Source of the DNA: an uncultured Lachnospiraceae bacterium
Lineage (GTDB): Bacteria > Bacillota > Clostridia > Lachnospirales > Lachnospiraceae
Assembly (NCBI GenBank): GCA_947589095.1
Contig: CANQBX010000028.1
Coordinates: 1-44,053, forward strand
DNA length: 44,053 nucleotides
Direction: 5' to 3'
The notes beneath the pieces were generated by a model, which was given only the letters and a program-made list of their open reading frames with translations, did no database searches and was not told the origin of the DNA. This document shows, one piece after another, positions 3,129 through 36,192 of this stretch. A program made the translations under genes and the position numbers. Position 1 is the stretch's first letter. The number at the start of each line of letters is the position of its first letter.

Positions 3129-3251
3129 GGAAATCCTCCTCCTTTCGTATTGCTCGGCTGTTGCAGCAGTCGGCATATCCATTGTAAAGGAAAATAGGGG
3201 AAACGGCAATAGATGATTCTTTCGACAAAAATGAAATCATGAACAGTCGAA

Positions 3252-3290
3252 ACCGGCGAGAGCCGGTCATGCGGGGACGGCCTCCCGCAT
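3252..3290 (+). promoter_or_regulatory. Two small hairpins in the transposase leader
   Basis: ACCGGC-GAGA-GCCGGT (3252-3267) is followed directly by ATGCGGG (3269-3275) paired with CCCGCAT (3284-3290). They lie 33-70 bases before the preferred transposase start and could modulate its translation. Confidence 0.45.
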
Positions 3291-3322
3291 CTGATGATGA
3301 CAGGCTGGAAAGGGGTGATCAG

Positions 3323-5272
3323 ATGGCTCAGATGCTGACGGCCAAGCAAGTGGCCGAGGTTAAAGGGTGTAGTTGCCAATATGTGAAGAAAATTATCAAA
3401 GACGGCAAGCTCCCGGCCGTGGAAACCGTGAATGGGAAGAACCGGAAGACCTACCTGGTGCCGCTGGATGCCCTGGATGAGCGGCTGCAGCACAGGTGGT
3501 ATGAGATGGCCATGGACAGCCGGCCGGAGGGGGCCGACGCCCCGGATCAGACGCCCGGAGCCCCGGTCGAGGAGTTTACGGAAGCGGAACGGGCAGAGAT
3601 AGACTTCTGGATCGGCCTGGTGGAACAGTGGCAGCAGTACAGGGCCATGCCGGGGGTTACATCCAAGGCGGAGGTGGATCGGAAGTTCGTGACGCTCTGC
3701 AGTCTGGAATATCCGGACCGGAAGATCTCCGTGGATATGCTTTACCGGAAATGGAAGGCCATCAGGGAGAATGATATGGCGGCTCTGGTGGACAAGCGGG
3801 GAAAGTGGCGGAAGGGCGAGAGCTCCATCGATGATACGATCTGGCAGGCGTTCCTTTATTACTATCTGGATGAGGCGCAGCATCCGATCCGGAAATGCCT
3901 GGACTACACGAAGCTGTGGGCCCAGGAAAAGCGGCCGGACCTGTACGCGGACATCCCGAGTTATTCGGCGTTCTACCGGAGGCTGAGCTCCGAGGTGCCG
4001 GAAGGGGTGAAGGTGCTGGGCCGCGAGGGCCACAAGGCGTTCAACGACCGGTGCGCCCCGTATATCCGCAGGGTCTACGAGGATATCGCCAGTAATGAGT
4101 GGTGGATCGCCGACAACCATACGTTTGATGTTATGGTGAGGGATAAGGACGGGAACCTGCACAGGCCGTACCTGACGGCTTTCCTGGATGCCAGGAGCGG
4201 GATATTTACCGGATTCTATGTCACAGATAACCCGAGCTCGGAGGCCACGCTGTTCGCCCTGAGGAAGGGGATCCTGGAATACGGCCTGCCGGATAACATC
4301 TATGTCGATAACGGCCGGGAGTTCCTGACCTACGACATCGGCGGCCTGGGACACCGCAGGAAGAAGCCGAAGGACGGCGCAGCGACGTTTGAGCCGCCCG
4401 GGGTGTTCAAGCGGCTGGGGATCAACATGACCAACGCCATCGTCCGCAACGCCAAGGCCAAGATCATCGAGCGGAGGTTCCGGGACGTAAAGGATGACCT
4501 TTCCAGGCTGTTCAACACATACACCGGAGGGAACCCGACCGAGAAGCCGGAGCGCCTGAAGTACGTGCTGAAGAAAGACGCCATCTACACCGATGAGGAG
4601 TTCAAGGAGTATGTGGAGGCGGTGATCCGGTATTATTTCAACCTGCAGGTTTACAATGGCCCGGTGGCCGCCGATAAAGGCAAGCTGAAGATGGATGTAT
4701 ACAATGAGCGGCTGACAAGGAGGAGAACGGCGTCGGCTGGCGATCTGAACCTGATGCTGATGAGAAGCAGCCGTCCGCAGAAGGTGGCCAGGCGGGGCGT
4801 CCACCTGGATATCGCGGGAGCCCACATCGATTACTGGAACGATGACTTCATTGAGATGATGTTTGGGAAAACGGTATATTTCCGGTATGACCCGGAAGAC
4901 CTGAAGGAAGTCAGGATATACGACCTGGAGGACAGGTTCATCATGACGGTACCCGCGGATAACCAGGCGGTACTCTCATACGGGGCCAGCAAGGACGATG
5001 TCAGAGAGGCCATGGCGAAGACCAGGCGGTATGAGAAGATCGCGAAGCAGTATAAGGAAAATGCGATCCTGGCTGAAAATGACCGGATCACATCCATGGA
5101 GCTGGTCCTTATGGAGGCCCAGCGCAACAAAGCGGAATACCAGGGAAAGGCCAATCCGAAGGTGCTGGAAGTCGCAAGGGCAGACGAGGAGCCGGCATTC
5201 AAGAAAGTCGTAGGAGGTGCGAACCTGGATCTGATGAATAAAAACGCAGCCAAGAGGCGAGGAGGTAAGTGA
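3323..5272 (+). CDS. Mu-type DDE transposase (MuA-like)
   Basis: A 649-residue protein of MuA size (MuA is 663). An N-terminal winged-helix/excisionase-like DNA-binding part (about 5-65) is followed by a Mu-type integrase core. The catalytic triad reads D264 (IADNHTF), D329 (YVDNGRE) and E383 (IIERRFR), close to D269, D336 and E392 of MuA. It catalyses strand cleavage and transfer at the prophage ends for integration and replicative transposition. The ATG at 3323 follows GAAAGGGGTGA; an upstream ATG at 3239 without a ribosome site would add 28 residues. The gene overlaps the MuB-like gene by one base. Confidence 0.95.
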   Translation: MAQMLTAKQVAEVKGCSCQYVKKIIKDGKLPAVETVNGKNRKTYLVPLDALDERLQHRWYEMAMDSRPEGADAPDQTPGAPVEEFTEAERAEIDFWIGLVEQWQQYRAMPGVTSKAEVDRKFVTLCSLEYPDRKISVDMLYRKWKAIRENDMAALVDKRGKWRKGESSIDDTIWQAFLYYYLDEAQHPIRKCLDYTKLWAQEKRPDLYADIPSYSAFYRRLSSEVPEGVKVLGREGHKAFNDRCAPYIRRVYEDIASNEWWIADNHTFDVMVRDKDGNLHRPYLTAFLDARSGIFTGFYVTDNPSSEATLFALRKGILEYGLPDNIYVDNGREFLTYDIGGLGHRRKKPKDGAATFEPPGVFKRLGINMTNAIVRNAKAKIIERRFRDVKDDLSRLFNTYTGGNPTEKPERLKYVLKKDAIYTDEEFKEYVEAVIRYYFNLQVYNGPVAADKGKLKMDVYNERLTRRRTASAGDLNLMLMRSSRPQKVARRGVHLDIAGAHIDYWNDDFIEMMFGKTVYFRYDPEDLKEVRIYDLEDRFIMTVPADNQAVLSYGASKDDVREAMAKTRRYEKIAKQYKENAILAENDRITSMELVLMEAQRNKAEYQGKANPKVLEVARADEEPAFKKVVGGANLDLMNKNAAKRRGGK

Positions 5273-6228
5273 TGAAAAATTATAACGCGGAACTGCAGGC
5301 GAGGCTGGAGCGGTTTCTGGAAGAGGAGAATTTAAGCCAGGCAAAGGCGGCCCCGGTCCTGGGGATCAGCCAGGCGGTACTGAGCCAGTACCGCAGGAGC
5401 GCATATGACAAGGGCGATATCGGCGAGGTGGAGCGGAAGCTGGCCGAGTTCTTCTGGATCAAGGATGAGCAGGCCGAGAACATCCGCAAGGCGGAACCTT
5501 ATAAGCTGGCCCCGGGTTATGTGCCCACATCGATCTCGGAGGGCGTCTACAAGACGATCCGGTACTGCCAGCTGGAGAAGGGGATTGTGGTCATTGACGG
5601 GGACGCGGGGATCGGCAAGACGAAAGCGGCCGCCAAGTTCCTTCAGGACAATCCAACGACCACCGTATACATCAAGGCGTCGCCCTGCACCAGCACGCTC
5701 CGGAGCCTGATGCGGATGATCGCCAGGGCGCTCAAGATCCCGGAGAACCAGCGGACGGAGGAGTTGTCCTTCGCCATCCAGGAGAAGCTCCGGGCCACGG
5801 ATAAGATCATCATTATCGATGAGGCCCAGAACATCAAGTTCACGGCGCTGGAAGAGGTCAGCCGCTGGACGGATGAGGATATGTTCACCGGCCGGCCGGG
5901 TATCGGGATCGTCCTGATCGGGAACGTGGAGGTCTATAACAAGATGCTTGGCAAGCAGGAAGCGATCTTCGCGCAGCAGTTCAACCGGACGCGGCTCCAC
6001 AGCCGGTACCATACCACGGATGTCACCCGGTCAGACGTGGCGCAGCTGTTCCCGGTTCTCCAGGAGAAGGGGATGGAGAAGGAACTGAATTACCTGTACA
6101 GCATCAGCCACAGCAAATGGGGCGTCCGGGGCATGGTGAACGTATTCAACAACGCGGTCAACAATGAGGATATCTCCCTGGAGGGCCTCCAGAAGATGGC
6201 GGCCACCATGGGGATCCGGTTTATCTAA
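5272..6228 (+). CDS. MuB-like transposition ATPase
   Basis: A 318-residue AAA+ ATPase with Walker A GDAGIGKTK (110-118) and Walker B IIIIDE (179-184). A small N-terminal HTH (about 10-60) precedes it, as in MuB. MuB captures target DNA, delivers it to the transposase and gives target immunity. The ATG at 5272 overlaps the transposase stop as TGATG with AGGAGG upstream, so the two proteins are translationally coupled. A GTG three bases earlier is possible. Confidence 0.93.
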   Translation: MKNYNAELQARLERFLEEENLSQAKAAPVLGISQAVLSQYRRSAYDKGDIGEVERKLAEFFWIKDEQAENIRKAEPYKLAPGYVPTSISEGVYKTIRYCQLEKGIVVIDGDAGIGKTKAAAKFLQDNPTTTVYIKASPCTSTLRSLMRMIARALKIPENQRTEELSFAIQEKLRATDKIIIIDEAQNIKFTALEEVSRWTDEDMFTGRPGIGIVLIGNVEVYNKMLGKQEAIFAQQFNRTRLHSRYHTTDVTRSDVAQLFPVLQEKGMEKELNYLYSISHSKWGVRGMVNVFNNAVNNEDISLEGLQKMAATMGIRFI

Positions 6229-9795: not shown

Positions 9796-10126
9796 GGAAG
9801 CAGAGAGAAGACGGTTCAGGGCAGGAGCCTTCATGGTCAATAACGGAAGGGTGCTGCTGACGATCAACCTGCTCCGTGAAAAGTACAATGCGCTGCGGAG
9901 CGTGGAAAAGGGTCTCCGGAACGAGGGGATCGAGAGGCAGGAGTTTATCGACAGCGTGAACTTCCTGGCCGAAGAGGGTTATATCAGCCTGAGGAGCATT
10001 GAAAACAGGGAGGCGGCCAGCCTTGCGGATTCCGACTACCTGACGCTGGAAGCGCGGGTCACCGGCAAAGGGATCCGGCTCCTGGGCGGCGGGATCTCCG
10101 ACAACATGGTGGACCTGGGCGACTGA
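9788..10126 (+). CDS. Mu gp26-like winged-helix protein
   Basis: A 112-residue protein with winged-helix character: helical repeats around residues 25-70, then a beta wing and a conserved-looking C-terminus TGKGIRLL. Mu gp26 has the same ArsR-like look and gene position. The role is probably structural or regulatory in packaging but is not known. GGAGCGGGAG precedes the ATG. Confidence 0.65.
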   Translation: MNKEAERRRFRAGAFMVNNGRVLLTINLLREKYNALRSVEKGLRNEGIERQEFIDSVNFLAEEGYISLRSIENREAASLADSDYLTLEARVTGKGIRLLGGGISDNMVDLGD

Positions 10127-10128
10127 TC

Positions 10129-10689
10129 ATGGATCAGGAGCGCAGGAGGAGGAGCGTCGGCAAGGTGGACCGGCTGCCGCCGGAGCTTAGGGACACCGTG
10201 GAGCAGATGCTCCTGACCGGATGCACATATAAGGAAATCGTGGCTTTCCTGAAGGAGAACGGCGAGGAGATGAGCCAGATGGCCGTCTGCACATACGCCA
10301 GGAAGTACCTGGCCACGGTGGAGATGATCAATGTGGCCCAGAGCAATTTCTCCATGCTCATGGATGAGATGAACCGGTATCCAGACCTGGATACATCCGA
10401 GGCGCTGATCCGGCTGGCAAGCCACCACGTTATGGAAGCGCTGACCAATGTGGATGGGGAACAGATGAAGGAGATCCCCATTGACAAGCTGATCCGGGAG
10501 ACGAACGGGCTGATCCGGGCAGCGGCCTACAAGAAGCGCATCGAGGTCCAGAACCGTGATAACTATGAGGCCGGCCTTGAGGCGGTCAAGAGCCTGGTGT
10601 TTGAGGCGATGGCGAAGGAGAACCCGGAGCTTTACCGCCAGGTCAGCACATATCTGAACAAGAAGAAAGACGAAGGACTGGAGGTGTAG
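10129..10689 (+). CDS. DUF3486 protein (Mu gp27, small terminase analogue)
   Basis: A 186-residue protein with an N-terminal HTH-like part beginning with a basic run and VDRLPPELRDTVEQML, typical of DUF3486. The rest is helical. In Mu-like phages it precedes the large terminase and is thought to be the small terminase. Here the NusG-like gene and its RNA lie between the two, which is unusual. The ribosome site is weak and two bases separate it from the previous stop, so it is probably translationally coupled. Confidence 0.8.
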   Translation: MDQERRRRSVGKVDRLPPELRDTVEQMLLTGCTYKEIVAFLKENGEEMSQMAVCTYARKYLATVEMINVAQSNFSMLMDEMNRYPDLDTSEALIRLASHHVMEALTNVDGEQMKEIPIDKLIRETNGLIRAAAYKKRIEVQNRDNYEAGLEAVKSLVFEAMAKENPELYRQVSTYLNKKKDEGLEV

Positions 10690-11525: not shown

Positions 11526-13286
11526 GTGAGAAAAGGCAGGGAGCAGAGCCTGAAAACCCTGATCGGGGCAATGGCTGAAGCCGAGAGCAAAACATATTAT
11601 GATGAGCAGGACACGGCCGCCAGCGACCTGGAGGGGCTTCTGCGGACGTTCCTTTATAAAGACGATACGCCGGAAAGGCAGCGGATCCGGACAGACTATG
11701 AAGCCGGGGCTGTGCCGCTGACGGGAAAGGACGGGATCAGGCAGCGGCTGGGCGCTATCGATATGGAATTCTTTGGCCGGGCGTATTTCCCGCATTACTT
11801 TTCCAAGCCATCCCCCCAGTTCCACAGGGAACTGGATGGGATATGGCATGAAGGGGTGCTGAAGGGAATCCAGCCGGTCACACCGGCCAGGATCCGGGAG
11901 ATCGACAGGCTGCCGGGCTGCCGGAGGGTGGTGGCGGCTCCCCGTGGACACGCCAAATCCACCAACCTGACATTTAAGGGCACGATCCATGCGGTGGCAT
12001 ACGGATACAAGCATTATCCCATCATCCTGTCGGACAGTTCCGACCAGGCGGAAGGTTTTCTTGAAAACATCCGCGTGGAATTTGAAGAGAACGAAGCGAT
12101 CCGGGAGGATTTCGGCGATCTGGTCGGAAAGGTCTGGAGAACCAACGTCATAGTGACCAGCACAAATATCAAGGTGGAGGCGATTGGCTCCGGAAAGAAG
12201 ATCCGAGGAAGGAAGCACCGGAACTGGAGGCCGGACCTGTTGGTGCTGGACGATATCGAGAATGATGAGAACGTCCGGACGCCGGAGCAGCGGAGCAAGC
12301 TGGAGAACTGGTTTTTAAAGGCCGTTTCAAAGGCGGGTGATGATTATACGGACATCGTCTATATCGGGACGCTGCTGCATTACGACAGCCTTCTCGCAAA
12401 GACGCTTCGGAATCCCGGGTACAAGGCCATAAAGTACAGGGCGGTCCTTTCTTTTTCGAAGGAAGATGGCCTGTGGAGTCAATGGGAAGACATCTTCACG
12501 GATCTTTCCAATGAGCGGCATACCGAGGACGCCAGGGCTTTCTTTGAGGAACACAGGGAGCGGATGCTGGAAGGGACAGAAGTGCTCTGGGAGGAGAAGC
12601 TCTCCTATTACGATCTGATGGTCATGAGGGTCACTGAAGGAGAAGCGGCGTTCAATTCTGAAGAACAGAATGATCCCATCAATCCGGACGACTGCATTTT
12701 CAACGAAGAATGGTTCGACTATTACAACGAGGCCGAGATCTCGTTTAGGGACAGTAGCTTCCAGTTCTTCGGGTTCGTGGATCCGTCCCTTGGCAAAACC
12801 AAGAAGAGCGATTTCTCGGCGATCATCACGCTGGCAAAGCATATGCCGACCGGATATATGTATGTCCTGGATGCCGATATCGAACGCCGGCATCCGGATA
12901 AGATCATTACGGATATCCTGGACAAGGAGAGGCTGCTGCGGCGTGAATACGGCAGGGGATATAAAAAGTTCGGCGCTGAGACCGTACAGTTCCAGTGGTT
13001 CCTGAAGGAAGAACTGGCGAAGGCTTCGGCCAGGGCGGGGCTGTACCTGCCGATAGAGGAAGTGCCGCAGACCAGCGATAAGACCATGAGGATCCAGACG
13101 ATGCAGCCGGATGTAAAAAACCATTATATCAAATTCAATAAGCGCCACAAGCTGCTGCTTGAGCAGATGTTCCATTTCCCGATGGGTGCCCACGATGACG
13201 GTCCGGACGCGCTGGAAGGATGCCGGACGATTGCCAAGAAGGGGAAACGGTTCAGGATCCTGGACAAGGGCAGCCTTGGCGTATAG
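11526..13286 (+). CDS. Large terminase subunit (Mu gp28-like)
   Basis: A 586-residue packaging motor. Walker A-type APRGHAKST at 138-146 and Walker B LLVLDDIE at 238-245 form the ATPase. The RNase H-like nuclease follows, with FVDPSLGKTKKSD near 417-429 and HDDGPDALEG near the end. It cuts and pumps phage DNA into proheads at the portal. The GTG at 11526 is preferred since GAGGAGGG precedes it; a GTG at 11496 adds ten residues. It is the first gene after the antitermination RNA. Confidence 0.93.
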   Translation: MRKGREQSLKTLIGAMAEAESKTYYDEQDTAASDLEGLLRTFLYKDDTPERQRIRTDYEAGAVPLTGKDGIRQRLGAIDMEFFGRAYFPHYFSKPSPQFHRELDGIWHEGVLKGIQPVTPARIREIDRLPGCRRVVAAPRGHAKSTNLTFKGTIHAVAYGYKHYPIILSDSSDQAEGFLENIRVEFEENEAIREDFGDLVGKVWRTNVIVTSTNIKVEAIGSGKKIRGRKHRNWRPDLLVLDDIENDENVRTPEQRSKLENWFLKAVSKAGDDYTDIVYIGTLLHYDSLLAKTLRNPGYKAIKYRAVLSFSKEDGLWSQWEDIFTDLSNERHTEDARAFFEEHRERMLEGTEVLWEEKLSYYDLMVMRVTEGEAAFNSEEQNDPINPDDCIFNEEWFDYYNEAEISFRDSSFQFFGFVDPSLGKTKKSDFSAIITLAKHMPTGYMYVLDADIERRHPDKIITDILDKERLLRREYGRGYKKFGAETVQFQWFLKEELAKASARAGLYLPIEEVPQTSDKTMRIQTMQPDVKNHYIKFNKRHKLLLEQMFHFPMGAHDDGPDALEGCRTIAKKGKRFRILDKGSLGV

Positions 13287-13304
13287 GAGAAGGAGGTGGC
13301 GGCC

Positions 13305-14681
13305 ATGCCGGTGATCTACATGGACAGGAAGTCCGTGGAGAGCCTGACCGTGCAGGATATCCGCGATATCATTGATACCAATATGGTCGGGACGAAATAC
13401 GACACGCTGCATGAATACTATGTAGGGAGACACCATATCCTGAATGAGACAAAGAGGAACAGCGCCGACCCGAACAACAGGCTGGTGGTCAATATGGCTA
13501 AGTACATAACCGACACAGCCACCGGCTATTTCCTGGGGCAGCCGATCATATATGGCAGCCAGAACGAGGAGTTTCTGAAGGCGCTGCAGGATATTTTTGA
13601 TTATAACGATGAGCAGGATCACAACATGGAACTGGCTAAGGAGTGCAGCATCTGCGGAGACTGCTTTGAAATGCTTTACCTGGATGAGGAAGGGAGGATC
13701 CGGTTCACGGAGGTGCCGTCAGGAAGCATGGTGATGATCTATGAGACGGACAGCGGCCATCAGGAGCCGGCAGCGGCCATCCGGGTGGTGTCTTCCAGGG
13801 ATAAGTATGACAACCTAATCAGGAAAGCTGAATTCTGGACGGCATCCCAGGTCCTGCGCCTCCGCTCCGTCAATCATGGGATGTTTAACCTGGAAGCCAT
13901 CGAGGAGCATTACTGGCAGGATGTACCGTTTGTGGAGTATGTGAACAACAAGGAGCGGATCGGTGATTTTGAGGGTGTTATCTCTCAGATCGACGCATAC
14001 AACAGGGTACAGAGTAACACGGCGAATTTTTTCCAGTACAACGACGACGCCATTCTAAAGGTCACCAAGCTGGGGGACGTAACCACTGACGATATCAAAG
14101 AAATGCGGGAAAAGGGAGCAATCATCCTGGAGGATGGCGGCGATGTTCAGTGGCTCCTGAAGGAAGTGAGCGATACCGGACTTGAAAATTATAAGAGCCG
14201 GCTGAAAGAAGACATCCATACCATGGCTGAAGTACCCCATCTGTGCGACGAATCCTTTGGCGGCAACCTGTCAGGCGTTGCCATCTCCTATAAGCTGTGG
14301 GGGCTTGAACAGCTCTGTTCCATGAAGGAGAGGAAATTTAAGAAGGGAATACAGCGCCGGCTCCGGCTGATCACCAACATCCTGAACATCCTGGGATCCA
14401 ATTACGATTACCGCGATATCGGCATGAAGTTCCGCAGGAACCGGCCGCAGAATGATCTGGAGACGGCGCAGATCGTAACGATGCTGGCGAATGACCTTTC
14501 CAGGGAGACCAGGCTGCAGATGCTGCCTTCTGTCGATAATGTCCAGGAGGAACTGGAACGCATCCAGAAGGAAAAGAATCAGGAGAGCGAGGATTTTGGT
14601 GTTTACCAGAAGTTTGCCGAAGCATTCCGGACTCCAGCCGATATGGAGGGGGACGTGACGGATGAGCCAGAAGGAACGTGA
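13305..14681 (+). CDS. Portal protein, SPP1 gp6-like
   Basis: A 458-residue portal of the SPP1 gp6 family: an N-terminal part with YYVGRHHIL and NRLVVNMAKYITDTATGYFLG, typical of the family, then a long helical C-terminus. It forms the ring at the head vertex through which DNA passes. AAGGAGG precedes ATG 13305; a GTG at 13296 is too close to that site. The Mu portal is of another family (DUF935), so the head module was exchanged. It overlaps the next gene by 20 bases. Confidence 0.92.
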   Translation: MPVIYMDRKSVESLTVQDIRDIIDTNMVGTKYDTLHEYYVGRHHILNETKRNSADPNNRLVVNMAKYITDTATGYFLGQPIIYGSQNEEFLKALQDIFDYNDEQDHNMELAKECSICGDCFEMLYLDEEGRIRFTEVPSGSMVMIYETDSGHQEPAAAIRVVSSRDKYDNLIRKAEFWTASQVLRLRSVNHGMFNLEAIEEHYWQDVPFVEYVNNKERIGDFEGVISQIDAYNRVQSNTANFFQYNDDAILKVTKLGDVTTDDIKEMREKGAIILEDGGDVQWLLKEVSDTGLENYKSRLKEDIHTMAEVPHLCDESFGGNLSGVAISYKLWGLEQLCSMKERKFKKGIQRRLRLITNILNILGSNYDYRDIGMKFRRNRPQNDLETAQIVTMLANDLSRETRLQMLPSVDNVQEELERIQKEKNQESEDFGVYQKFAEAFRTPADMEGDVTDEPEGT

Positions 14682-16230
14682 CGCCAGTGTCCAGAGGGCG
14701 AAGGACCGGGTGCTGATGAATGCCAAAGAGACTGACCGGTGTACCGGGGATATCCTGCAGATATATGCGGATGCCGCGGCGCAGCTGGAGAAAGAGATCC
14801 AGGCCATGTATCAGAAGTATGCCGGAGACAACGGCCTGACGGCAGCTGAAGCGTCAAGGCTGTTAAGCGGCGACGAATACAGCCGGTGGCGCAAGAGCAT
14901 CGACCGGTATGTAGCGGAGGCCAGGGGAAGTTCCCGGACCCTTCTTGAACTGAATACGCTTTCGGCTAAATCGCGGATCAGCCGGAAAGAGCAGCTGCTG
15001 GCTGGGATCTACCGTACCATGATCGACATGGCCGGGGATGTCGAGGAGAGGATGGAGGATTTCCTTGGCGGCTTGTATGTCTCTAATTATTACCGCGGGC
15101 ATTATGATGTGCAGTCTCTGCTGGGAATCGGATTCTCTGTTGCGGAACTGGACCGGAAGCAGATCCGGCGTATCCTGGACTATCCCTGGTTGGGAAAGAA
15201 TTTTTCCCAGTCAGTATGGGAAAATACGGACAAGCTGGCGGCGCTGGCCAGGCGCGAGATCGCGCTGGGCTTTATATCCGGATCCAGCGTCCAGAAGATG
15301 GCCAAGGCAATCGATGACGTTATGGGAAGCGGCCGGTTCGCGGCCATGCGGCTGGTCCGGACGGAAAGTAATTACTTCGCGAACCAGGGGGAGCTGCAGT
15401 CCTACCGGAACATGGGGATCGAAGAATACTATTTCATGGGTGGAGGATGCGATATCTGCCAGCCGCTGGGCGGCCAGTGCTTCCGTGTGGATGAGGCGCG
15501 GGTTGGCGAGAACATGCCTCCAATCCATCCCAACTGTAAATGTACCATCCGGGCGAAGACCAGGATCAGTGAGTTCCTGAAACGTCAGGGAGCGGAGCCG
15601 CTGAAGGAAGGCATAGGCTATGAAGAATGGAAAAAACGCTATGTGAAGGGAGGGCTGTCCGCAACGGTCGGCGGCCGGGACGGCGTTGAGGCCCACGAAG
15701 AGAAAAAGCTGCTTGAAGTGGTTGACTTCGACAATAAAAAGCTGGTACAATCGAAGCTGAAGGGATATACGGACGAGATTGCGGGAGATAAGAAAAGGGA
15801 GAACGCGGTCTGCATCACCAGGAGCGGCGCTGTGTACCGCTGCTTCGGAACGAAGGACAAGGTGTATCCGGACTTCGATCTCGGGGATGAGTTTGCGGGC
15901 TCCTATGTTACGCATAACCACCCGATGTCAGTCACTCACTTCTCCTTCAGTGATGAGGATGTTTCCCTTTTCATGGAATACAGGCTCCCGGAACTGGTTG
16001 GTACGGATCAACGGTATATATACCGTATCCGAAGAACGAAAGAGACGCAGTATGCGGATCCTGAGACGGTCACACATTTGTTTTATCGCGGCTATTTCGA
16101 GGAGCTTCTGCAGGCGGAGGCTGATGGCGCGATAGATCCTGATGCGGATGAGTATGATTTTATCGTCAGGAAACTGGCGGAAAGGTACGGGTTTGAATAT
16201 GAGCGGGAAAAGCGGAACAAAAACCTATGA
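14662..16230 (+). CDS. MuF/SPP1 gp7-like head protein with C-terminal JAMM/RadC-like domain
   Basis: A 522-residue protein. Residues ~1-300 are the minor head (MuF) domain ending in the usual cysteine cluster (CDICQPLGGQC ... HPNCKC). Residues ~360-522 form an extra domain with HNHP at 418-421, then S428 and D431. This is the HxHP-x6-SxxD pattern of JAMM/MPN metalloproteins such as RadC. MuF proteins of temperate phages often carry C-terminal toxin or enzyme domains that are injected with the DNA. A protease, deubiquitinase-like or nuclease role is open. Confidence 0.85.
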   Translation: MSQKERDASVQRAKDRVLMNAKETDRCTGDILQIYADAAAQLEKEIQAMYQKYAGDNGLTAAEASRLLSGDEYSRWRKSIDRYVAEARGSSRTLLELNTLSAKSRISRKEQLLAGIYRTMIDMAGDVEERMEDFLGGLYVSNYYRGHYDVQSLLGIGFSVAELDRKQIRRILDYPWLGKNFSQSVWENTDKLAALARREIALGFISGSSVQKMAKAIDDVMGSGRFAAMRLVRTESNYFANQGELQSYRNMGIEEYYFMGGGCDICQPLGGQCFRVDEARVGENMPPIHPNCKCTIRAKTRISEFLKRQGAEPLKEGIGYEEWKKRYVKGGLSATVGGRDGVEAHEEKKLLEVVDFDNKKLVQSKLKGYTDEIAGDKKRENAVCITRSGAVYRCFGTKDKVYPDFDLGDEFAGSYVTHNHPMSVTHFSFSDEDVSLFMEYRLPELVGTDQRYIYRIRRTKETQYADPETVTHLFYRGYFEELLQAEADGAIDPDADEYDFIVRKLAERYGFEYEREKRNKNL

Positions 16231-29015: not shown

Positions 29016-30380
29016 ATGACGAAAAAGGTTTTTATCGCTGAACAGGAAACACTGGAGGAGGTGAATCGGAAGGTTGATAAGCTTATTGACCGTTTGGCAC
29101 CGCTGGACAAGCCGGTTTATGGCATGATCATTCATGAGCAGACAGATCTGGATCCTGAATCCAGAGTGGAGTATATCGGGGCCAACAAAGACTATAAGCC
29201 CATGAAGATGAATATGGAAACCCATGTCATGGACCAGGGAGGCTGGGCAGGATGGAACTGGCTGAAAGGCGTTGTGCCGGTCATGTGCGACTGGGATGGA
29301 GGGATTAATTATTATCTCAATCCAGAGGATTACAGCAAAAAGCTGGATGGCACAGAATCGGATGTATCGGATATTGAATACGACGGCAATGCAATGGTCG
29401 TTTATCCGTTGATCTATACTTGCGAGTATAAGCAGGGCACAGATCGAGTGGTCCTGTTTTGCGAGAACAAGATTAACGATGATTTCTTGCCCATCGGATT
29501 TAATGTCGGCGGAACTGTCCGGCCGTATATGTTGGGGCCGATGTTCTACGGATCGATTGACGATCAGGGCCGGATGCGCAGCATTGCTGATCAGTGGAGC
29601 TGCCTGACGGCATCCGGCAATGCTACGGATGTTACAGACGCCAGCATCGGCACCTTGACGAAGACGGCCGGGATCACCACGGAGGTCCAGTGGCAGGCCA
29701 TCCAGAAGACATCCAAGAACGGCCTGTTCTTCGGCGGGCCGCTTACCAATACCCTGGCCGATATCCTTGTCATGCTGGCAAAGAGCACTAACAGCCAGGA
29801 AGCGTATGGAGGGGGCATGAGCCATTCCAATGTTGCGGGGAGTTATCTGACCGGAGCCGCAGGGACAAAAGAAAACCATTACAATACGAAACAGAATGAG
29901 GTTGTTGACGGTGGGATGTTTTATGGCTCCAATGACAACAAGAGCTTCAACAAGATATTCCACAGCATCGTTCTCGGAAGCATGATGCTGTGGCAGCGCG
30001 ACCCGTACATGGTGATGAAGGGAGGCAGGATTAAGGTATCGACGGATTATACCTACGATTTGACAGGAGAGAATTACCTCGATACCGGTATTGACTTCAA
30101 GCCCGGCAACACGAATCTGCATTATTATCCGTCATATCATGTAGTCAAAGGATACGGACCGGTTCCGGATGTATCAGGAAAGGACAAAGGATCATCTTCG
30201 ACCGGGTACTGTGATGCCACTTGGGCGAATGCTGATGGCGAGAGGGTTTCGTTGCGCTTCGGCGACTGCAACGATGGGCTGAATGCCGGCCTTTGGGCCC
30301 GGTCGTTGTCTGCTGCTGCTTCGTACGCCTGGTGGGGCTACGCCGCGTCCCTGCTTCTCCCAGCACCTGCCGCCGCATAA
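29016..30380 (+). CDS. DGR-diversified tail protein with C-type-lectin-like end
   Basis: A 454-residue protein. The N-terminus is a short coiled coil (about 5-30) and a phage part with IHEQTDLDPESRVEYIGANKDY. The C-terminus has the DGR C-type lectin signature: RFGDCNDGLNAGLWARSLSA followed by WWGYAASL. Residues 411-447 come from VR. Positions 420, 430, 432, 433, 437, 441, 442 and 447 differ from the template, where most are N or D codons. It is likely the tail-tip receptor binder. The last nine residues lie after VR or at its edge. Confidence 0.93.
   Translation: MTKKVFIAEQETLEEVNRKVDKLIDRLAPLDKPVYGMIIHEQTDLDPESRVEYIGANKDYKPMKMNMETHVMDQGGWAGWNWLKGVVPVMCDWDGGINYYLNPEDYSKKLDGTESDVSDIEYDGNAMVVYPLIYTCEYKQGTDRVVLFCENKINDDFLPIGFNVGGTVRPYMLGPMFYGSIDDQGRMRSIADQWSCLTASGNATDVTDASIGTLTKTAGITTEVQWQAIQKTSKNGLFFGGPLTNTLADILVMLAKSTNSQEAYGGGMSHSNVAGSYLTGAAGTKENHYNTKQNEVVDGGMFYGSNDNKSFNKIFHSIVLGSMMLWQRDPYMVMKGGRIKVSTDYTYDLTGENYLDTGIDFKPGNTNLHYYPSYHVVKGYGPVPDVSGKDKGSSSTGYCDATWANADGERVSLRFGDCNDGLNAGLWARSLSAAASYAWWGYAASLLLPAPAAA
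30245..30356 (+). repeat. DGR variable repeat (VR)
   Basis: The final 112 bp that match TR, at the 3' end of the target gene. Twelve mismatches (30273, 30303, 30309, 30310, 30313, 30324, 30336, 30337, 30339, 30353, 30354, 30356), all where TR has A: two to four each of A to G, C and T. The GC block CGCCGCGTCCCT (30341-30352) is invariant and may be the initiation-of-homing site. Confidence 0.96.
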
Positions 30381-30387
30381 GCGGCGG
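30370..30387. promoter_or_regulatory. Cruciform hairpin after VR
   Basis: CCGCCGC-ATAA-GCGGCGG forms a perfect 7-bp stem with a 4-base loop, 13 bp beyond the end of VR. In the Bordetella phage DGR a similar hairpin just behind VR is needed for efficient homing. Here the TAA of the loop is the stop codon of the target gene. No such hairpin follows TR. Confidence 0.85.
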
Positions 30388-30397
30388 AATGGGGGGA

Positions 30398-30415
30398 CCG
30401 GGGGCTCTCCCCCGG
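30398..30415. terminator. GC hairpin between target gene and TR
   Basis: CCGGGGG-CTCT-CCCCCGG, 7-bp stem. No immediate T-run (AAAAGGTTTT follows). It may terminate the structural transcript weakly or mark the start of the TR transcript. Confidence 0.5.
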
Positions 30416-30483
30416 AAAAGGTTTTAGGTTTTTAAAATTTAGATATGGAAAGTTAGAGGGGCTGATGGGAGCGCCTTTCCGGC

Positions 30484-30595
30484 GGTTTCGTTGCGCTTCG
30501 GCGACTGCAACAATGGGCTGAATGCCGGCCTTTGGGCCCGGACGTTGAATGATGCTGCTTCGAACGCCTGGTGGAACAACGCCGCGTCCCTAATA
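30484..30595 (+). repeat. DGR template repeat (TR)
   Basis: A 112-bp non-coding copy of VR, offset by 239 bp in the same orientation. It holds AAC/AAT codons exactly at the variable residues. TR is copied by the reverse transcriptase with errors at adenines, and the cDNA replaces VR. Homology to VR stops at the next base (30596). Confidence 0.96.
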
Positions 30596-30851
30596 TCTAC
30601 CAAGAGAAGATACACCCAAATGCTCCCCATCAGTCAATACACCGCTGGCGGTTGTGATACCGCTATATCCGCCCCTTGAGGGTATTGGTGAGTGGAAATG
30701 ATTCCGGTCAGGGGCCGCAAGTAGTAGAAGTCGTTCGAAAGCAGCCAGGAGGTAGAAGATTAACTGACCAAATGTAACCCGAAGTGATGCCACAAAGAAG
30801 CTTAAAGGGCTATTGAGAGGTGATGCATGGAATCCGTAAGAGGCAAGTGAA
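30596..30851 (+). ncRNA. DGR RNA spacer between TR and the reverse transcriptase gene
   Basis: About 256 bp with no convincing gene. In characterised DGRs the RNA downstream of TR primes and structures cDNA synthesis, so this stretch is probably part of the DGR RNA. It contains several short hairpin-prone GC segments. An Avd gene is often found here but none is present. Confidence 0.65.
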
Positions 30852-32075
30852 ATGATAAAAAGAGGCATGATGAAATATGGGCCGTATGAAATCGAGAAGA
30901 TCACAGGCCAAAAGTGGCGGAAGAAAAAATCCTATCGCTATTTATACCGGCTGATCTGCCGGCGAGATGTGTTGCGGGCTGCGTTCTTCCGGATGCGGAA
31001 GAAAAAGACCAAGAGAGTAGACATCCGAGAAGTGGCGGCTGATCTGGAGGCATGGATCGACAGAATACAGCTGAAGCTTATAAATACGAAACCTCCTGAA
31101 TGGAAGGTGGAGTTCCCGGATTTGGCATTCCGGCCACCGAAACATAAGCCGGTATACCGAAAAGAACGTGGGAAGGTGAGGGAGACTTATGAACCGACCC
31201 TGGAGGAATTGTGGATTCAGCACGCGATTATCCTGATTCTGGAACCGATTATCTATGGCAGCAGCTACCCGCATTCCTATTCGTCGTTCCCTAAACGGGG
31301 AGGCCTGCGCGGGAAGAACACGCTCGCCAGATGGATCCGTTCAGGAAAAGGAATCCGGAATTTTGCCCAGTGTGATATACGCCATTTTTATGCGCACATC
31401 CGGCGTGATGTGATCATGAAGGCGCTGGGCAGGAGAATCCATGACAGGATGTTCCTGTATTTGATTGAGGTATGCCTTACATGGTTCCCGAAGATGCTGC
31501 CGCTTGGCTTTTTCCTTTCCCAGTGGTTTGCTAACTACCTGCTTCAGGCGTTGGATTTCGGGCTGAAATGCGTTGTGAAGGTTGCCCATGTGCTCCGCTA
31601 TCTGGACAATATTACGTTGGCAGATGATAGTAAAAAGAAGCTGCATGCTGCCATTCTCTATATCCGGAGGTTCCTTGGGAGACATAAACTTCGGATGAAA
31701 AATGACTGGCAGGTATTCCGGTTTGAATACGTCCGGAAGGATGGGTCCATTACCGGAAGACCGGTCTCTGCGATGGGCTGGGTCTTTCACAGGAACAGGA
31801 CCACCTTGAGAAAGAACAATATTCTGCATCTTTCAAGGGTGACACAAAGGCTGTATCGACGCAAAGAAGAAAAGAAAAAATTCCCATTGAGAACATGCCG
31901 ATCATTTTCAAGCCTTATGGGATGGGTTAAACATGCGGATGTATATGACTGGTATTTAGACCGGGTCAAGCCCTATGTCCGGTATAAGACAGTCAGAAAA
32001 ATAATATCGAAGAAAGACAAGGAGGAAGCGAGAAATGCGAGAATGGCAGAAGGAGCAGTGCTCCGTGCGGCCTAA
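30852..32075 (+). CDS. DGR-type reverse transcriptase
   Basis: A 407-residue RT of DGR size. Motif A is CDIRHFY (174-180, D175). Motif LGFFLSQ (218-224) has the SQ typical of DGR RTs. The catalytic box reads YLDN (250-253) instead of the usual YxDD, then ITLADDSKKKL. A basic N-terminus precedes SYSSFPKRGGLRGKNTL, the usual RT fingers element. It reverse-transcribes TR with adenine misincorporation. ATG 30852 has AGAGG upstream; 30867 or 30870 are alternatives. Confidence 0.9.
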   Translation: MIKRGMMKYGPYEIEKITGQKWRKKKSYRYLYRLICRRDVLRAAFFRMRKKKTKRVDIREVAADLEAWIDRIQLKLINTKPPEWKVEFPDLAFRPPKHKPVYRKERGKVRETYEPTLEELWIQHAIILILEPIIYGSSYPHSYSSFPKRGGLRGKNTLARWIRSGKGIRNFAQCDIRHFYAHIRRDVIMKALGRRIHDRMFLYLIEVCLTWFPKMLPLGFFLSQWFANYLLQALDFGLKCVVKVAHVLRYLDNITLADDSKKKLHAAILYIRRFLGRHKLRMKNDWQVFRFEYVRKDGSITGRPVSAMGWVFHRNRTTLRKNNILHLSRVTQRLYRRKEEKKKFPLRTCRSFSSLMGWVKHADVYDWYLDRVKPYVRYKTVRKIISKKDKEEARNARMAEGAVLRAA

Positions 32076-32376
32076 AGAACTGGAGCGGGTTAACTCAGAC
32101 ACGTTCATCCAGAGGAGAAATATCGAATCGTATGAGCGCGAGGGCTTTGATGGTCAGATGGAGACAGGATACACTTGTGAGAGCCGATTCCTGAGCATTG
32201 AGGAGTATTGCAATCTCCAGGAACAGAATGCCAGGCAGGAAGCTATACAGGGAGACATTCTGACATCCATGGCCGGACAGGCCGAAATCTATGAAAACCA
32301 GCTGCTCATTATGAGCGGCATGGCAGATCTTTATGAAGAGATCGAAGCTATCAAAGCAAAGGAAGGAGGTATGTAA
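32035..32376 (+). CDS. Hypothetical tail-region protein, 113 residues
   Basis: It starts within the RT gene (41-base overlap, GGAGG upstream). The C-terminal half is a coiled coil (EEYCNLQEQNARQEA ... YEEIEAIKAKEGG). Similar small proteins follow tail genes in Lachnospiraceae phages. Because it is translationally coupled to RT one could ask whether it is a DGR accessory, but its sequence does not look like a four-helix Avd. Confidence 0.5.
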   Translation: MREWQKEQCSVRPKELERVNSDTFIQRRNIESYEREGFDGQMETGYTCESRFLSIEEYCNLQEQNARQEAIQGDILTSMAGQAEIYENQLLIMSGMADLYEEIEAIKAKEGGM

Positions 32377-32892: not shown

Positions 32893-33288
32893 GTGAGCGA
32901 TATTTTATTTGAGGTAGTAAAACTGCTGGTTATGGTTGCCGTACTGGTTATTACCAGATATGTTATTCCATGGATTAGATCCAAAATCGAGAATGATAAG
33001 CTGACTGCTATCACTGAATGGGCAAGGATTGCTGTGCTGGCGGCTCAGCAGATAATGACGACGAAAGACGGGGCTGAGAAAAAGGCTATTGTTACTGAGT
33101 TTTTGAAAGAGATATTAACCGATAAAAATATAGCCCTTAGTGATTACCAGTTGGATATTTTGATTGAAGCGGCCGTAAAACAAATGAAGATGTCGGCACC
33201 TATGGAAGGCATCCTGGCAGAAGCAGGGGGCGATATGAATTTTCTTTCTGATAAGGAAGAAGGGGTGAAATGTGAAGAAGGGGATTGA
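32893..33288 (+). CDS. Holin, LLH family
   Basis: A 131-residue protein with one N-terminal membrane segment (about 5-25) followed by a long amphipathic charged part, as in LLH-type phage holins. It makes membrane lesions that release the lysin. GTG start with AGGAGG 9 bases upstream. It overlaps the lysin gene by 17 bases. Confidence 0.75.
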   Translation: MSDILFEVVKLLVMVAVLVITRYVIPWIRSKIENDKLTAITEWARIAVLAAQQIMTTKDGAEKKAIVTEFLKEILTDKNIALSDYQLDILIEAAVKQMKMSAPMEGILAEAGGDMNFLSDKEEGVKCEEGD

Positions 33289-34669
33289 TATCAGCAAGTG
33301 GCAGGCCACTGTGGATTTCCACAAAGTGGCCGCAGACGGGATTGATTTTGTCATCCTGCGGGAAGGCTATCGCAAGACGGTAGACCAGCGATTCTACGAG
33401 TACGTGGCCGGAGCACAAAATGCTGGATTGGACGTGGTCGGAGTGTATCATTTCAGTTATGCTCAGAATGTGGCTGACGTAATTGCAGAGGCTCAGGCAT
33501 GCATCAGCAATGTGGAAGCTGCCGGACTGGGGAAGGAAACGATTCTGTTCTATGATTTCGAGTACGACACGGTGGACAAAGCCCAAGCGGCCGGAATCAC
33601 CCTTGGCAAGGCTGAATGCGTCCAGTTTTCAGAGGTGTTCTGCGATTATGTCAGGGAACGCGGATATCGCCCGGGAATATATACCAATACCGATTATTAC
33701 CGCCGTATGTACGATCCGGAGACAATCAGCAAGTATCTGTTCTGGCTTGCCGATTACACCGGGGAACCGGATCTGCCGTGTGATTTCCACCAATACACGG
33801 ACAGTGGTCGGGTGAGTGGAATCAATGGCAGTGTTGATATGGATTATTGGTATACGGATGAGAAAGGGGATGAGACGATGGCTGTTTTGATCGGGAGCGC
33901 GAGAAGCAACGAGAATGGCGGAATCAACAGTGGCAAGGCAGGAGACCAAACAGGCGGAGAGGTTAGTACCCAAAACTGGTATCTGCACACCAAAGGATGG
34001 GTTGTGATCCGTCCAAACAGCCAGGAGGTTGCGGAGATCATAGCAAAAACCATGGAAGCGCTATGTACCAATAACAAAGTGGGCTATTGCCAAGATCACC
34101 GGTTGACCGGTTTTAATGCCGCGAAGGAGGTTGGATTCGACGTAAAAAAGATCACCAAGCCGGTCGAGATCGATTGCAGCGAGGGCGTCAGGATCTGCGT
34201 GTGTGCTGCTGGCATACAGGTGGGAGACTTCTACACCGGCAATGAAGCGGAAACCCTGGACAAGGCGAAAGATCCGGACGGCAGAGATGCGTTTACTGTC
34301 ATTAAGGACTCGAAGGTCTGCAGTTCTTCCGATTTGCTGCAGAGGGGTGATATTCTAGTGACCCGTACCAAGGGTCACACGGTCGTCGTCCTGTCCAACG
34401 GGGCCAAGGTCAAGAAGTATGTAATCGGGTGGAACCATGACGACATTGGAGGATGGTGGTATGCAGATACATCGAGTACATACCTCAAATCCTGCTGGAG
34501 GGTCATCAATGGTCATAAGTATTATTTTGATGATCGTGGGTATGCAGTTACCGGTTGGCAGCAGCTTGACGGCAAGTGGTATTTCTTCGAAAATACAAAA
34601 GGCGATGCACTTGAATGCGCATTATACCTGACAGATCAGACTGGCGTACAGGCCCCTGGCGCTTTTTAA
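33272..34669 (+). CDS. Endolysin: GH25 muramidase + NlpC/CHAP-like domain + cell-wall repeats
   Basis: A 465-residue three-part lysin. Residues 1-205 are a GH25 muramidase (GIDISKW with D6, YDFEY with D95 and E97). Residues 210-410 are a second catalytic domain (IGSARSNENGGINSGKAGDQTGGEV...GWVVIRPN, later RGDILVTRTKGHTVVVLSNG) of the type seen in Clostridia phage lysins. The end holds two choline-binding-like repeats (GHKYYFDDRGYAVTGWQQ, GKWYFFEN). It degrades peptidoglycan. GTG start. Confidence 0.92.
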   Translation: MKKGIDISKWQATVDFHKVAADGIDFVILREGYRKTVDQRFYEYVAGAQNAGLDVVGVYHFSYAQNVADVIAEAQACISNVEAAGLGKETILFYDFEYDTVDKAQAAGITLGKAECVQFSEVFCDYVRERGYRPGIYTNTDYYRRMYDPETISKYLFWLADYTGEPDLPCDFHQYTDSGRVSGINGSVDMDYWYTDEKGDETMAVLIGSARSNENGGINSGKAGDQTGGEVSTQNWYLHTKGWVVIRPNSQEVAEIIAKTMEALCTNNKVGYCQDHRLTGFNAAKEVGFDVKKITKPVEIDCSEGVRICVCAAGIQVGDFYTGNEAETLDKAKDPDGRDAFTVIKDSKVCSSSDLLQRGDILVTRTKGHTVVVLSNGAKVKKYVIGWNHDDIGGWWYADTSSTYLKSCWRVINGHKYYFDDRGYAVTGWQQLDGKWYFFENTKGDALECALYLTDQTGVQAPGAF

Positions 34670-34794: not shown

Positions 34795-35547
34795 GTGAAT
34801 AGTTTTATTGCGTGGATAGGCGGCAAAAAGCTGCTTAGGAAGGAAATTGTCAGTCGTTTTCCGGAAGACGGGTTTGACCGTTATGTTGAAGTGTTTGGAG
34901 GGGCCGGCTGGGTTCTGTTCGAAAAGGAACCCGGCAAGGAGCTGGAGGTGTTTAATGATATTGACAGCAATTTGATCAATCTGTATCGTTGCGTAAAGTA
35001 TCATTGCGAAGAATTGCAAAAGGAGCTGAATTGGATGGCAATATCCAGAGAGCAGTTCTTTGATAGTAGGAGCCAGTTGGAGGGCCGCGGATTAACTGAT
35101 ATTCAGAGAGCGGCTCGTTATTTACATATTATAAAAGTAAGCTTTGGAGCTGATAGGAGAACCTTTGGTACAAACAAAAAGAATCTTTCGGGTACTATTG
35201 ATTATTTGACTTTAGTGCAGGAAAGGCTTAAAAATGTAGTAATTGAGAATAAAGACTTTGAGGATCTTATCAAGGTTTATGATCGTCCCAGAGCCCTGCT
35301 GTACCTGGATCCACCGTATCATGGGACAGAAAAATACTATGAGGGAGGTTTTAAATTAGAAGATCACCTCCGTTTGCGAGAATCTCTTGGAAAGGTGAAG
35401 GGGCGTTTTATTTTATCGTATAATGACGATGAATTTATCCGGGATTTATACAAAGGCTTTCGGATAGAGTCCATCAGCAGAAATTGCGGTCTAACCAATA
35501 AAGGAACTGCAGGGGAATTTAATGAATTGATTATCAGGAATTACTAA
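34795..35547 (+). CDS. Dam-type DNA adenine methyltransferase
   Basis: A 250-residue D12-class N6-adenine methylase: FIAWIGGKKLL at the start, SAM-binding VEVFGGAGW (31-39) and catalytic LDPPYHG (DPPY 172-175). The target may be GATC as in Dam, but specificity cannot be read off. GTG start with AGGAGGAAAG upstream. No restriction partner is present, so it is an orphan, possibly protecting phage DNA or affecting transposase and promoter binding. Mu carries its own DNA modification gene, mom, at the same right-end place. Confidence 0.88.
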   Translation: MNSFIAWIGGKKLLRKEIVSRFPEDGFDRYVEVFGGAGWVLFEKEPGKELEVFNDIDSNLINLYRCVKYHCEELQKELNWMAISREQFFDSRSQLEGRGLTDIQRAARYLHIIKVSFGADRRTFGTNKKNLSGTIDYLTLVQERLKNVVIENKDFEDLIKVYDRPRALLYLDPPYHGTEKYYEGGFKLEDHLRLRESLGKVKGRFILSYNDDEFIRDLYKGFRIESISRNCGLTNKGTAGEFNELIIRNY

Positions 35548-36010: not shown

Positions 36011-36050
36011 CTTGTGCGAAAAATTTTCGGATTTTGCGCGAAAAGCTACA
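36011..36050. mobile_element. Probable right end of the Mu-like prophage
   Basis: The sequence from TTGTGCGAAAAA (36012-36023) contains the palindrome CGAAAA-A-TTTTCG and a second GCGCGAAAAG, and ends in CTACA at 36050. Mu-type elements end in TG...CA. Host coding sequence of a cell-wall-binding protein resumes at the next bases. No inverted counterpart was found at the left side of the window. Confidence 0.6.
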
Positions 36051-36192
36051 CTGGCAGCAGATCGGCGGCGTGTGGTACTATTTCAAGACGGTGTCGGACG
36101 GCACGAAGGGTATTCTGTATACGGATACAAGGACGCCCGACGGCTATCATGTGAACGCGGACGGCAGCTGGGACGGAAAGCCTGCGGCATAA
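36051..36192 (+). pseudogene. 3' remnant of a host cell-wall-binding protein gene
   Basis: The frame from TGG at 36052 reads WQQIGGVWYYFK, a classic choline-binding-like (CW_1) repeat, then an end TPDGYHVNADGSWDGKP typical of Lachnospiraceae surface proteins. Its 5' part is cut off exactly at the presumed prophage end. The missing half does not occur at the other side of the prophage in this window. Confidence 0.85.

What the first reader, a model, noticed from the sequence alone, without database searches (positions are those of the whole stretch)
29016..32075. Complete diversity-generating retroelement in a Mu-like prophage tail tip
VR (30245-30356) and TR (30484-30595) differ at 12 of 112 positions and all 12 are adenines in TR. 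The changes give A to G, C and T. Variable codons fall on eight residues of a C-type-lectin-like end, most being N or D codons in TR. With a cruciform and an RT gene, this is a textbook DGR acting on a phage receptor-binding protein. The recent A-only pattern suggests that the element has been active.
Basis: partly seen in the sequence, partly recalled or inferred. Interest (0 to 1): 0.9.

Follow-up and report, generated by a model that had tools for sequence, protein, structure and literature searches.

The report
Gut phage mutator with altered enzyme
A Mu-like virus lying dormant in a bacterium carries a complete cassette that rewrites the end of one of its tail proteins at random, an already known kind of system, but its copying enzyme has an asparagine where an acid was thought invariant, a change also found in dozens of other such cassettes.

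The parts
29016..30380 (+). DGR target: tail protein, 454 aa, phrog_5302, predicted C-type-lectin-type fold, VR at its C-terminus
30245..30352 (+).
30353..30369 (+). 3' edge of VR between the core and the first hairpin, where an IMH-like element would lie (inferred)
   Evidence: TR and VR ends differ here in window and L032
30370..30387 (.). Hairpin/cruciform 1, 7-bp stem, loop ATAA holding the stop codon
30398..30415. Hairpin/cruciform 2, 7-bp GGGGG/CCCCC-type stem, loop CTCT; a stem of this type follows VR in 28 of the 57 loci listed (window included)
30484..30591 (+). Template repeat (TR), secure core, 17 A, none at a third codon position when read in the VR frame
30638..30757 (+). Structured spacer RNA between TR and RT, Rfam RF03025 RT-4, 76.6 bits (gathering 73.5)
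   Evidence: also in all 10 relatives given, L032, L033 and L041 among them
30852..32075 (+). DGR reverse transcriptase, 407 aa; motif 4 LGFFLSQ, motif A D175, motif C YLDN (residues 250-253)
31608..31610 (+). AAT codon of N253, where the second Asp of YxDD is expected
32035..32376 (+). 113-aa ORF overlapping the RT end, phrog_20201, unknown function, pI 4.43; probably not Avd (inferred)

Best explanation
This is a working DGR of a Mu-like prophage. The TR transcript, with its RT-4 spacer as recognition element (inferred from BPP-1), is copied by the RT, which misreads template adenines; the cDNA replaces VR next to the downstream hairpin(s), so the lectin-type end of a tail protein is varied at adenine-encoded residues. 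The RT does this with motif C YLDN: it keeps the two aspartates expected to bind metal (D175 of motif A, D252 of motif C) and lacks the second, outward-facing aspartate of YxDD. YxDN arose more than once among DGR RTs and is compatible with adenine-directed retrohoming. Shown: anatomy, A-only TR/VR, TR-to-VR rewriting after the split from L032, recurrent YxDN. Inferred: catalysis by this enzyme, roles of spacer and hairpins, receptor binding.
For: A-only differences. Window versus L032: TRs differ at 20 sites where neither has A, and each VR follows its own TR at 20 of 20; TR-TR identity 78%, own TR-VR 92% and 86% over 107 nt, so copying went on after the split of two YxDN-bearing lineages. 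The L032 genome (G001, 94% complete) gave this single RT match at E<=1 with profile A7. Within the clade pN 0.21-0.34 versus pS 0.73-0.84 (saturated), N253 coded by both AAT and AAC. 54 of 74 other distinct YMDN RTs have a TR/VR pair of at least 95 nt, 900 mismatches at A and 20 elsewhere. D/N state needs 5 changes on 73 rows, at least 4 forced by starred branches, and 4, all forced, on 111 rows. RT model pLDDT 93, nearest PDB chain 8ub7. [quoted passage not shown]
Against: No enzyme assay, no reads, no population data. In HIV-1 RT the double change D185N plus D186N abolished polymerase activity, though it includes the first aspartate and a drug-resistant RT with the same changes kept residual activity (PMC5498913, passages). 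The host genome has a second DGR (G000:C29) that could have helped in trans. No Avd found, although the BPP-1 DGR needs it (PMC12875486, passages). L041 and L033, two of the four clade members, gave no TR/VR pair (contig end and run of N). YxDN is rare among the host-genome loci: the 17 other DGR-type RTs among the loci all have YMDD.
Confidence: 0.8

Rival explanations
1. The YxDN RT is catalytically dead or crippled, and VR is diversified in trans by another DGR RT of the same cell.
For: The window's genome holds a second DGR with a YMDD RT at G000:C29, TR/VR 24 of 24 at A.
Against: The L032 genome, with the same YxDN clade and A-only VR, gave no second RT match (94% complete draft). The C29 locus showed no RT-4 spacer hit, so its RNA recognition probably differs. 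Excess of synonymous over nonsynonymous differences in the YxDN RTs and 54 YMDN loci with their own TR/VR pairs.
Confidence: 0.1
2. The element was active until recently but is now decaying; YLDN is an inactivating mutation.
For: Motif C departs from the published consensus (PMC3521204, passages).
Against: N is shared by four members down to 52% identity in a clade with support 100 and the open frame is intact; VR rewriting happened after window and L032 parted.
Confidence: 0.04
3. VR/TR similarity and differences come from ordinary recombination plus point mutation, without reverse transcription.
For: Recombination alone could homogenise VR and TR.
Against: 9 of 9 (12 of 12) differences at A, p about 6e-9 (3e-11); strong A bias in the relatives with a pair, though the script that found pairs asked for at least three A mismatches per other mismatch.
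Confidence: 0.01

Closest known systems
BPP-1 DGR of Bordetella phage (RT 8ub7, Mtd 1yu0; that 8ub7 is the BPP-1 enzyme is recalled)
   Same: RT fold and SQ motif, TR upstream of RT with a spacer RNA, VR at the 3' end of a lectin-type protein, downstream hairpin that holds the stop codon (PMC3240598, passages)
   Different: Motif C YLDN instead of YMDD; no avd seen; hairpin loops ATAA and CTCT instead of GRNA; spacer matches Rfam RT-4
Faecalibacterium phage FP_Epona DGR (L034)
   Same: Same order target-TR-RT behind baseplate and collar-fibre genes, RT 39% identical, RT-4 spacer; TR/VR 13 of 13 at A
   Different: RT has YMDD
DGRs of Mu-like phages: Bacteroides hankyphage (PMC6199706) and Faecalibacterium Mushu (PMC11792537)
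   Same: Transposable phage with a DGR; hankyphage repeats 117 bp with 14 mismatches at adenines (passages)
   Different: Other hosts and phages; motif C of their RTs was not examined here
Large YMDN clade of DGR RTs in viral contigs (L199, L206, L218, L221 and others)
   Same: Same N in motif C and A-biased TR/VR
   Different: Separate clade in the tree; six YMDN/NMDN loci given to (L134, L135, L136, L138, L139, L140) carry Rfam RT-18 instead of RT-4, a seventh DN locus, L148, had no hit
TaqVP, Thermus aquaticus DGR variable protein (5vf4)
   Different: 14% sequence identity; from Thermus

Membership tests
Diversity-generating retroelement (DGR) | TR/VR pair whose differences fall on TR adenines | tested here: met
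   12 of 12; core 9 of 9, p 6.2e-9
Diversity-generating retroelement (DGR) | RT of the DGR clade with (I/L/V)GxxxSQ in motif 4 | tested here: met
   LGFFLSQ; best solved relative is 8ub7 by profile and fold (titled DGR RT); phrog_1423
Diversity-generating retroelement (DGR) | VR at the 3' end of a target gene, usually with C-type-lectin fold | tested here: met
   VR core in codons 410-446 of 454; fold matches TaqVP and Mtd, on a predicted model
Diversity-generating retroelement (DGR) | TR copied into VR over time (retrohoming) | tested here: met
   20 of 20 informative sites follow own TR; indirect, one pair of relatives
Canonical DGR RT active site as in 8ub7 | YxDD with both aspartates | tested here: not met
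   YLDN; N253 aligns with the second D of 8ub7. Not filed as this type
BPP-1-type DGR | Avd accessory protein | tested here: inconclusive
   Longest + strand frame between target and RT is 78 codons stop to stop and lies over TR; the downstream 113-aa protein is acidic; PF05635 search of the genome gave none, but its controls did not ring either
BPP-1-type DGR | Downstream hairpin, 7-10 bp GC-rich stem, 4-nt loop GRNA | tested here: not met
   Two 7-bp GC-rich stems with 4-nt loops, but loops ATAA and CTCT; stem criterion met, loop sequence not
Mu-like (transposable) phage | MuA-type transposase and MuB-type protein | tested here: met
   phrog_310 E 2.4e-117 at 3239-5272; phrog_296 E 1.8e-60 at 5269-6228; 39% identity to BalMu-1 transposase A
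Mu-like (transposable) phage | 5-bp target duplication at the ends | not tested
   Left end not located; only end-like repeats at 36012-36045
Rfam RT-4 RNA (RF03025) | Covariance-model score above gathering threshold | tested here: met
   76.6 bits versus 73.5, full length 1-118

The most novel reading that the evidence does not exclude
A sizeable part of phage DGRs works with a two-aspartate active site: YxDN is a recurrent, functional version of the RT motif C, probably gained three or more times (gains and losses cannot be told apart without a root), one gain lying in this phage's clade. The loss of the third carboxylate may even tune the enzyme, although no difference in mutation spectrum or in share of adenines changed was seen here.
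Probability: 0.65. Interest if true: 0.6.

Novelty: new variant of a known kind. Interest (0 to 1): 0.45.

Why it matters
The DGR itself is one more example of a known phage tail-diversifying cassette. The active site is what matters: a survey of 155 DGR RTs reported both motif C aspartates as 100% conserved (PMC3521204, passages), yet here YxDN recurs in DGRs whose TR/VR pairs bear the normal adenine signature. If the enzymes are active, the second aspartate is dispensable in this RT class, searches that demand YxDD will miss real DGRs, and natural YxDN/YxDD relatives give a direct way to ask what that residue does in an error-prone RT.

Tried and rejected
Trans-complementation by the second DGR of the genome was considered and found unlikely. 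The downstream 'ADD' of YLDNITLADD as compensation for the lost aspartate was rejected: a number of YMDD relatives have DDNKK there too. A different mutation spectrum in DN loci was tested and not found: A to C/G/T 18/67/41 in 9 DN loci versus 183/504/261 in 66 DD loci, chi-square p 0.29; share of adenines changed 126 of 254 versus 948 of 1737, Mann-Whitney p 0.40. General family libraries are weak on this RT: Pfam RVT_1 28.4 bits against a cut-off of 29.6, NCBIfam group II RT 58.5 against 300. Avd by Pfam PF05635: nothing, but controls silent. The target matched no PDB sequence by profile at E<=0.1; it has no Pfam hit itself, and one of 31 family members had one, CBM_5_12. Mu left end: not found. 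The first two viral-contig scans found no relatives, and a pattern specific to the window's own clade found only L041's contig.

Rows dropped or weak: L102's pair (offset 30 nt, probably a tandem repeat) was dropped; L148 and L137 (long branches) were left out of the second tree but are in the first. L119 and L131 (YADN/FADN with SP for SQ) have short pairs with one non-A mismatch each, so they are weak DGR cases. Of 14 DN proteins among 106, 11 have a pair; L033, L041 and L147 have none; over all, 82 of 106 have one. 'Distinct' means different last 150 residues; near-copies remain. Of the 101 stretches, looked at 100 (L147 had been seen before); five of their contigs (L134, L135, L136, L139, L140) had also been seen, so the 74 are not all new. 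In one search, 21 of 57 loci showed no perfect stem after VR.

Full report
Check of the observation. VR 30245-30356 and TR 30484-30595 differ at 12 of 112 positions, all TR adenines. The chance of that is about 3e-11. The repeat finder ends the repeat at 30352/30591. In the closest relative with a pair, L032, TR and VR part with a non-A mismatch right after the same place, so the last three A differences most likely belong to the 3' edge and the secure count is 9 of 9 at A in 108 nt (p 6e-9). Nine of 17 adenines of the core are changed; all 17 are at codon positions 1 or 2. Two 7-bp GC-rich hairpins follow VR, at 30370-30387 (stop codon in the loop) and 30398-30415. A stem of the second type, GGGGG with CCCCC, follows VR in 28 of the 57 loci listed, so it may be the conserved one; 21 of the 57 showed no perfect stem.

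Setting. The window is a whole 44,053-base contig of a 4.1 Mb draft genome. The contig of its closest relative, L032, has the same length as G001:C88 of a same-genus genome and bears the same RT; its record is titled uncultured Lachnospiraceae, so the host is probably a member of that family (inference). The prophage has MuA- and MuB-like genes, terminase, portal, capsid, tail sheath and tape measure, baseplate J, tail-collar fibre, the target, RT, holin, a GH25 endolysin and a D12 methyltransferase.

The RT. It has LGFFLSQ in motif 4. Its best solved relative is 8ub7, E 8e-44 with the family profile and 1.5e-13 alone, and best fold match too, titled DGR reverse transcriptase (model pLDDT 93). 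The spacer between TR and RT is Rfam RT-4. All ten relatives given, chosen by me from the family, also have RT-4; of twelve more distant loci none has RT-4 and eight have RT-18.

The active site. Motif C is Y-L-D-N (residues 250-253). L032 (70%), L033 (58%) and L041 (52%) have YMDN; the other distinct proteins above 31.2% identity have DD there, apart from the partial protein L147 (YMDN). In the tree, with motif C columns left out, the four form one clade with support 100 among YxDD rows. Fourteen of 106 distinct RT-like proteins have DN; the loci that bear them, the window aside, came from scans whose peptide patterns did not cover motif C. A scan of viral contigs for R-Y-M-D-N-x-T-x then gave 101 stretches; 90 of 94 ORFs with the motif match the DGR RT profile (E 2e-49 or better). 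Besides L041's contig 74 are distinct, five of whose contigs had been seen before; 54 of the 74 have a TR/VR pair of at least 95 nt, with 900 A versus 20 other mismatches (the pair finder demands at least three A mismatches per other one). The D/N state needs 4 changes on the 111-row tree, all forced by well-supported branches; these may be gains or gains and losses. A sample of 299 genomes of the phylum speaks the other way on frequency: among the loci held from it, the 17 other RTs with an SQ- or NQ-type motif all have YMDD.

Is the YxDN enzyme at work? The best evidence is the window against L032: their TRs differ at 20 positions where neither has A, and each VR matches its own TR at all 20. 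Four further TR differences have A on one side; there too each VR equals its own TR or departs from it only at a TR adenine. So VR was rewritten from TR after the lineages parted, and both have YxDN. The genome of L032 (94% complete) gave no other RT match at E<=1. Within the clade nonsynonymous differences are much rarer than synonymous ones; synonymous sites are saturated, so the ratio is only a bound. Structures of other RTs put the second aspartate outward from the active site (PMC12337344, passages), which makes the loss chemically plausible; the GDN motif of a measles-type polymerase (PMC7935272, passages) is an analogy only. Against it stands the HIV-1 double mutant D185N/D186N without polymerase activity, though a drug-resistant RT with the same changes kept a residue of it (PMC5498913, passages).

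What is known. DGRs in Mu-like gut phages are known: hankyphage (PMC6199706) and Mushu (PMC11792537; passages). Roux 2021 (PMC8144416, passages) finds the adenine bias near-universal, and its text has no occurrence of 'motif', 'catalytic' or 'aspartate'. [quoted passage not shown] Searches for YMDN, YxDN and similar with 'diversity-generating retroelement' found no paper in the open library; the 2018 classification paper and the DGR RT structure paper (both identified from recall) could not be read, so I cannot say that YxDN is unreported. PMC3240598 (hairpin rules) and PMC12875486 (Avd and bRT needed) were seen in passages.

Verdict. The finding is right and the element is a new member of a known kind. 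The part worth attention is the YxDN reverse transcriptase, a variant that recurs in viral contigs and seems functional.

Noticed in passing
G000:C29, about 12347-15980 (locus L038, minus strand): A second DGR in the same genome: RT 419 aa with YMDD, TR/VR of 126 nt differing at 24 positions, all A, and a 614-aa open frame as target; probably in a second prophage.
   Followed up: partly
L033, about 5600-5710: A run of N in the assembly cuts out most of VR up to the start of TR, as expected when an assembler trips over the repeat pair.
   Followed up: no
window 36012-36192: End-like repeats (TTGTGCGAAAAATTTTCGG, TTTTGCGCGAAAAG) are followed by the tail of an open frame that looks like a cell-wall-binding repeat; the prophage may sit inside a host gene. 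The left end was not found.
   Followed up: partly
window 32035-32376: A 113-aa acidic ORF overlaps the end of the RT gene; in the phage collection only FP_Epona (two records) has a match, also overlapping its DGR RT.
   Followed up: partly
L132, L133, L158, L138, L037: DGR-type RTs in which the tyrosine of motif C is replaced by N (RNMDD, RNMDN, RNIDD); all but L037 have A-biased TR/VR pairs.
   Followed up: no
L119, L131: YADN/FADN together with SP in place of SQ in motif 4, on long branches; possible odd or decaying DGRs.
   Followed up: no
window 33272-34669 and 34795-35547: GH25 endolysin with ELLD domain and choline-binding repeats, then a D12 adenine methyltransferase; L033 has a frame at 9934-10689 that looks similar to the latter by eye.
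   Followed up: no
L134, L135, L136, L138, L139, L140, L132, L117: The region near TR and RT of these DGR loci matches Rfam RT-18 (RF03021), so the Rfam 'RT' families RT-4 and RT-18 look like DGR spacer RNAs.
   Followed up: partly
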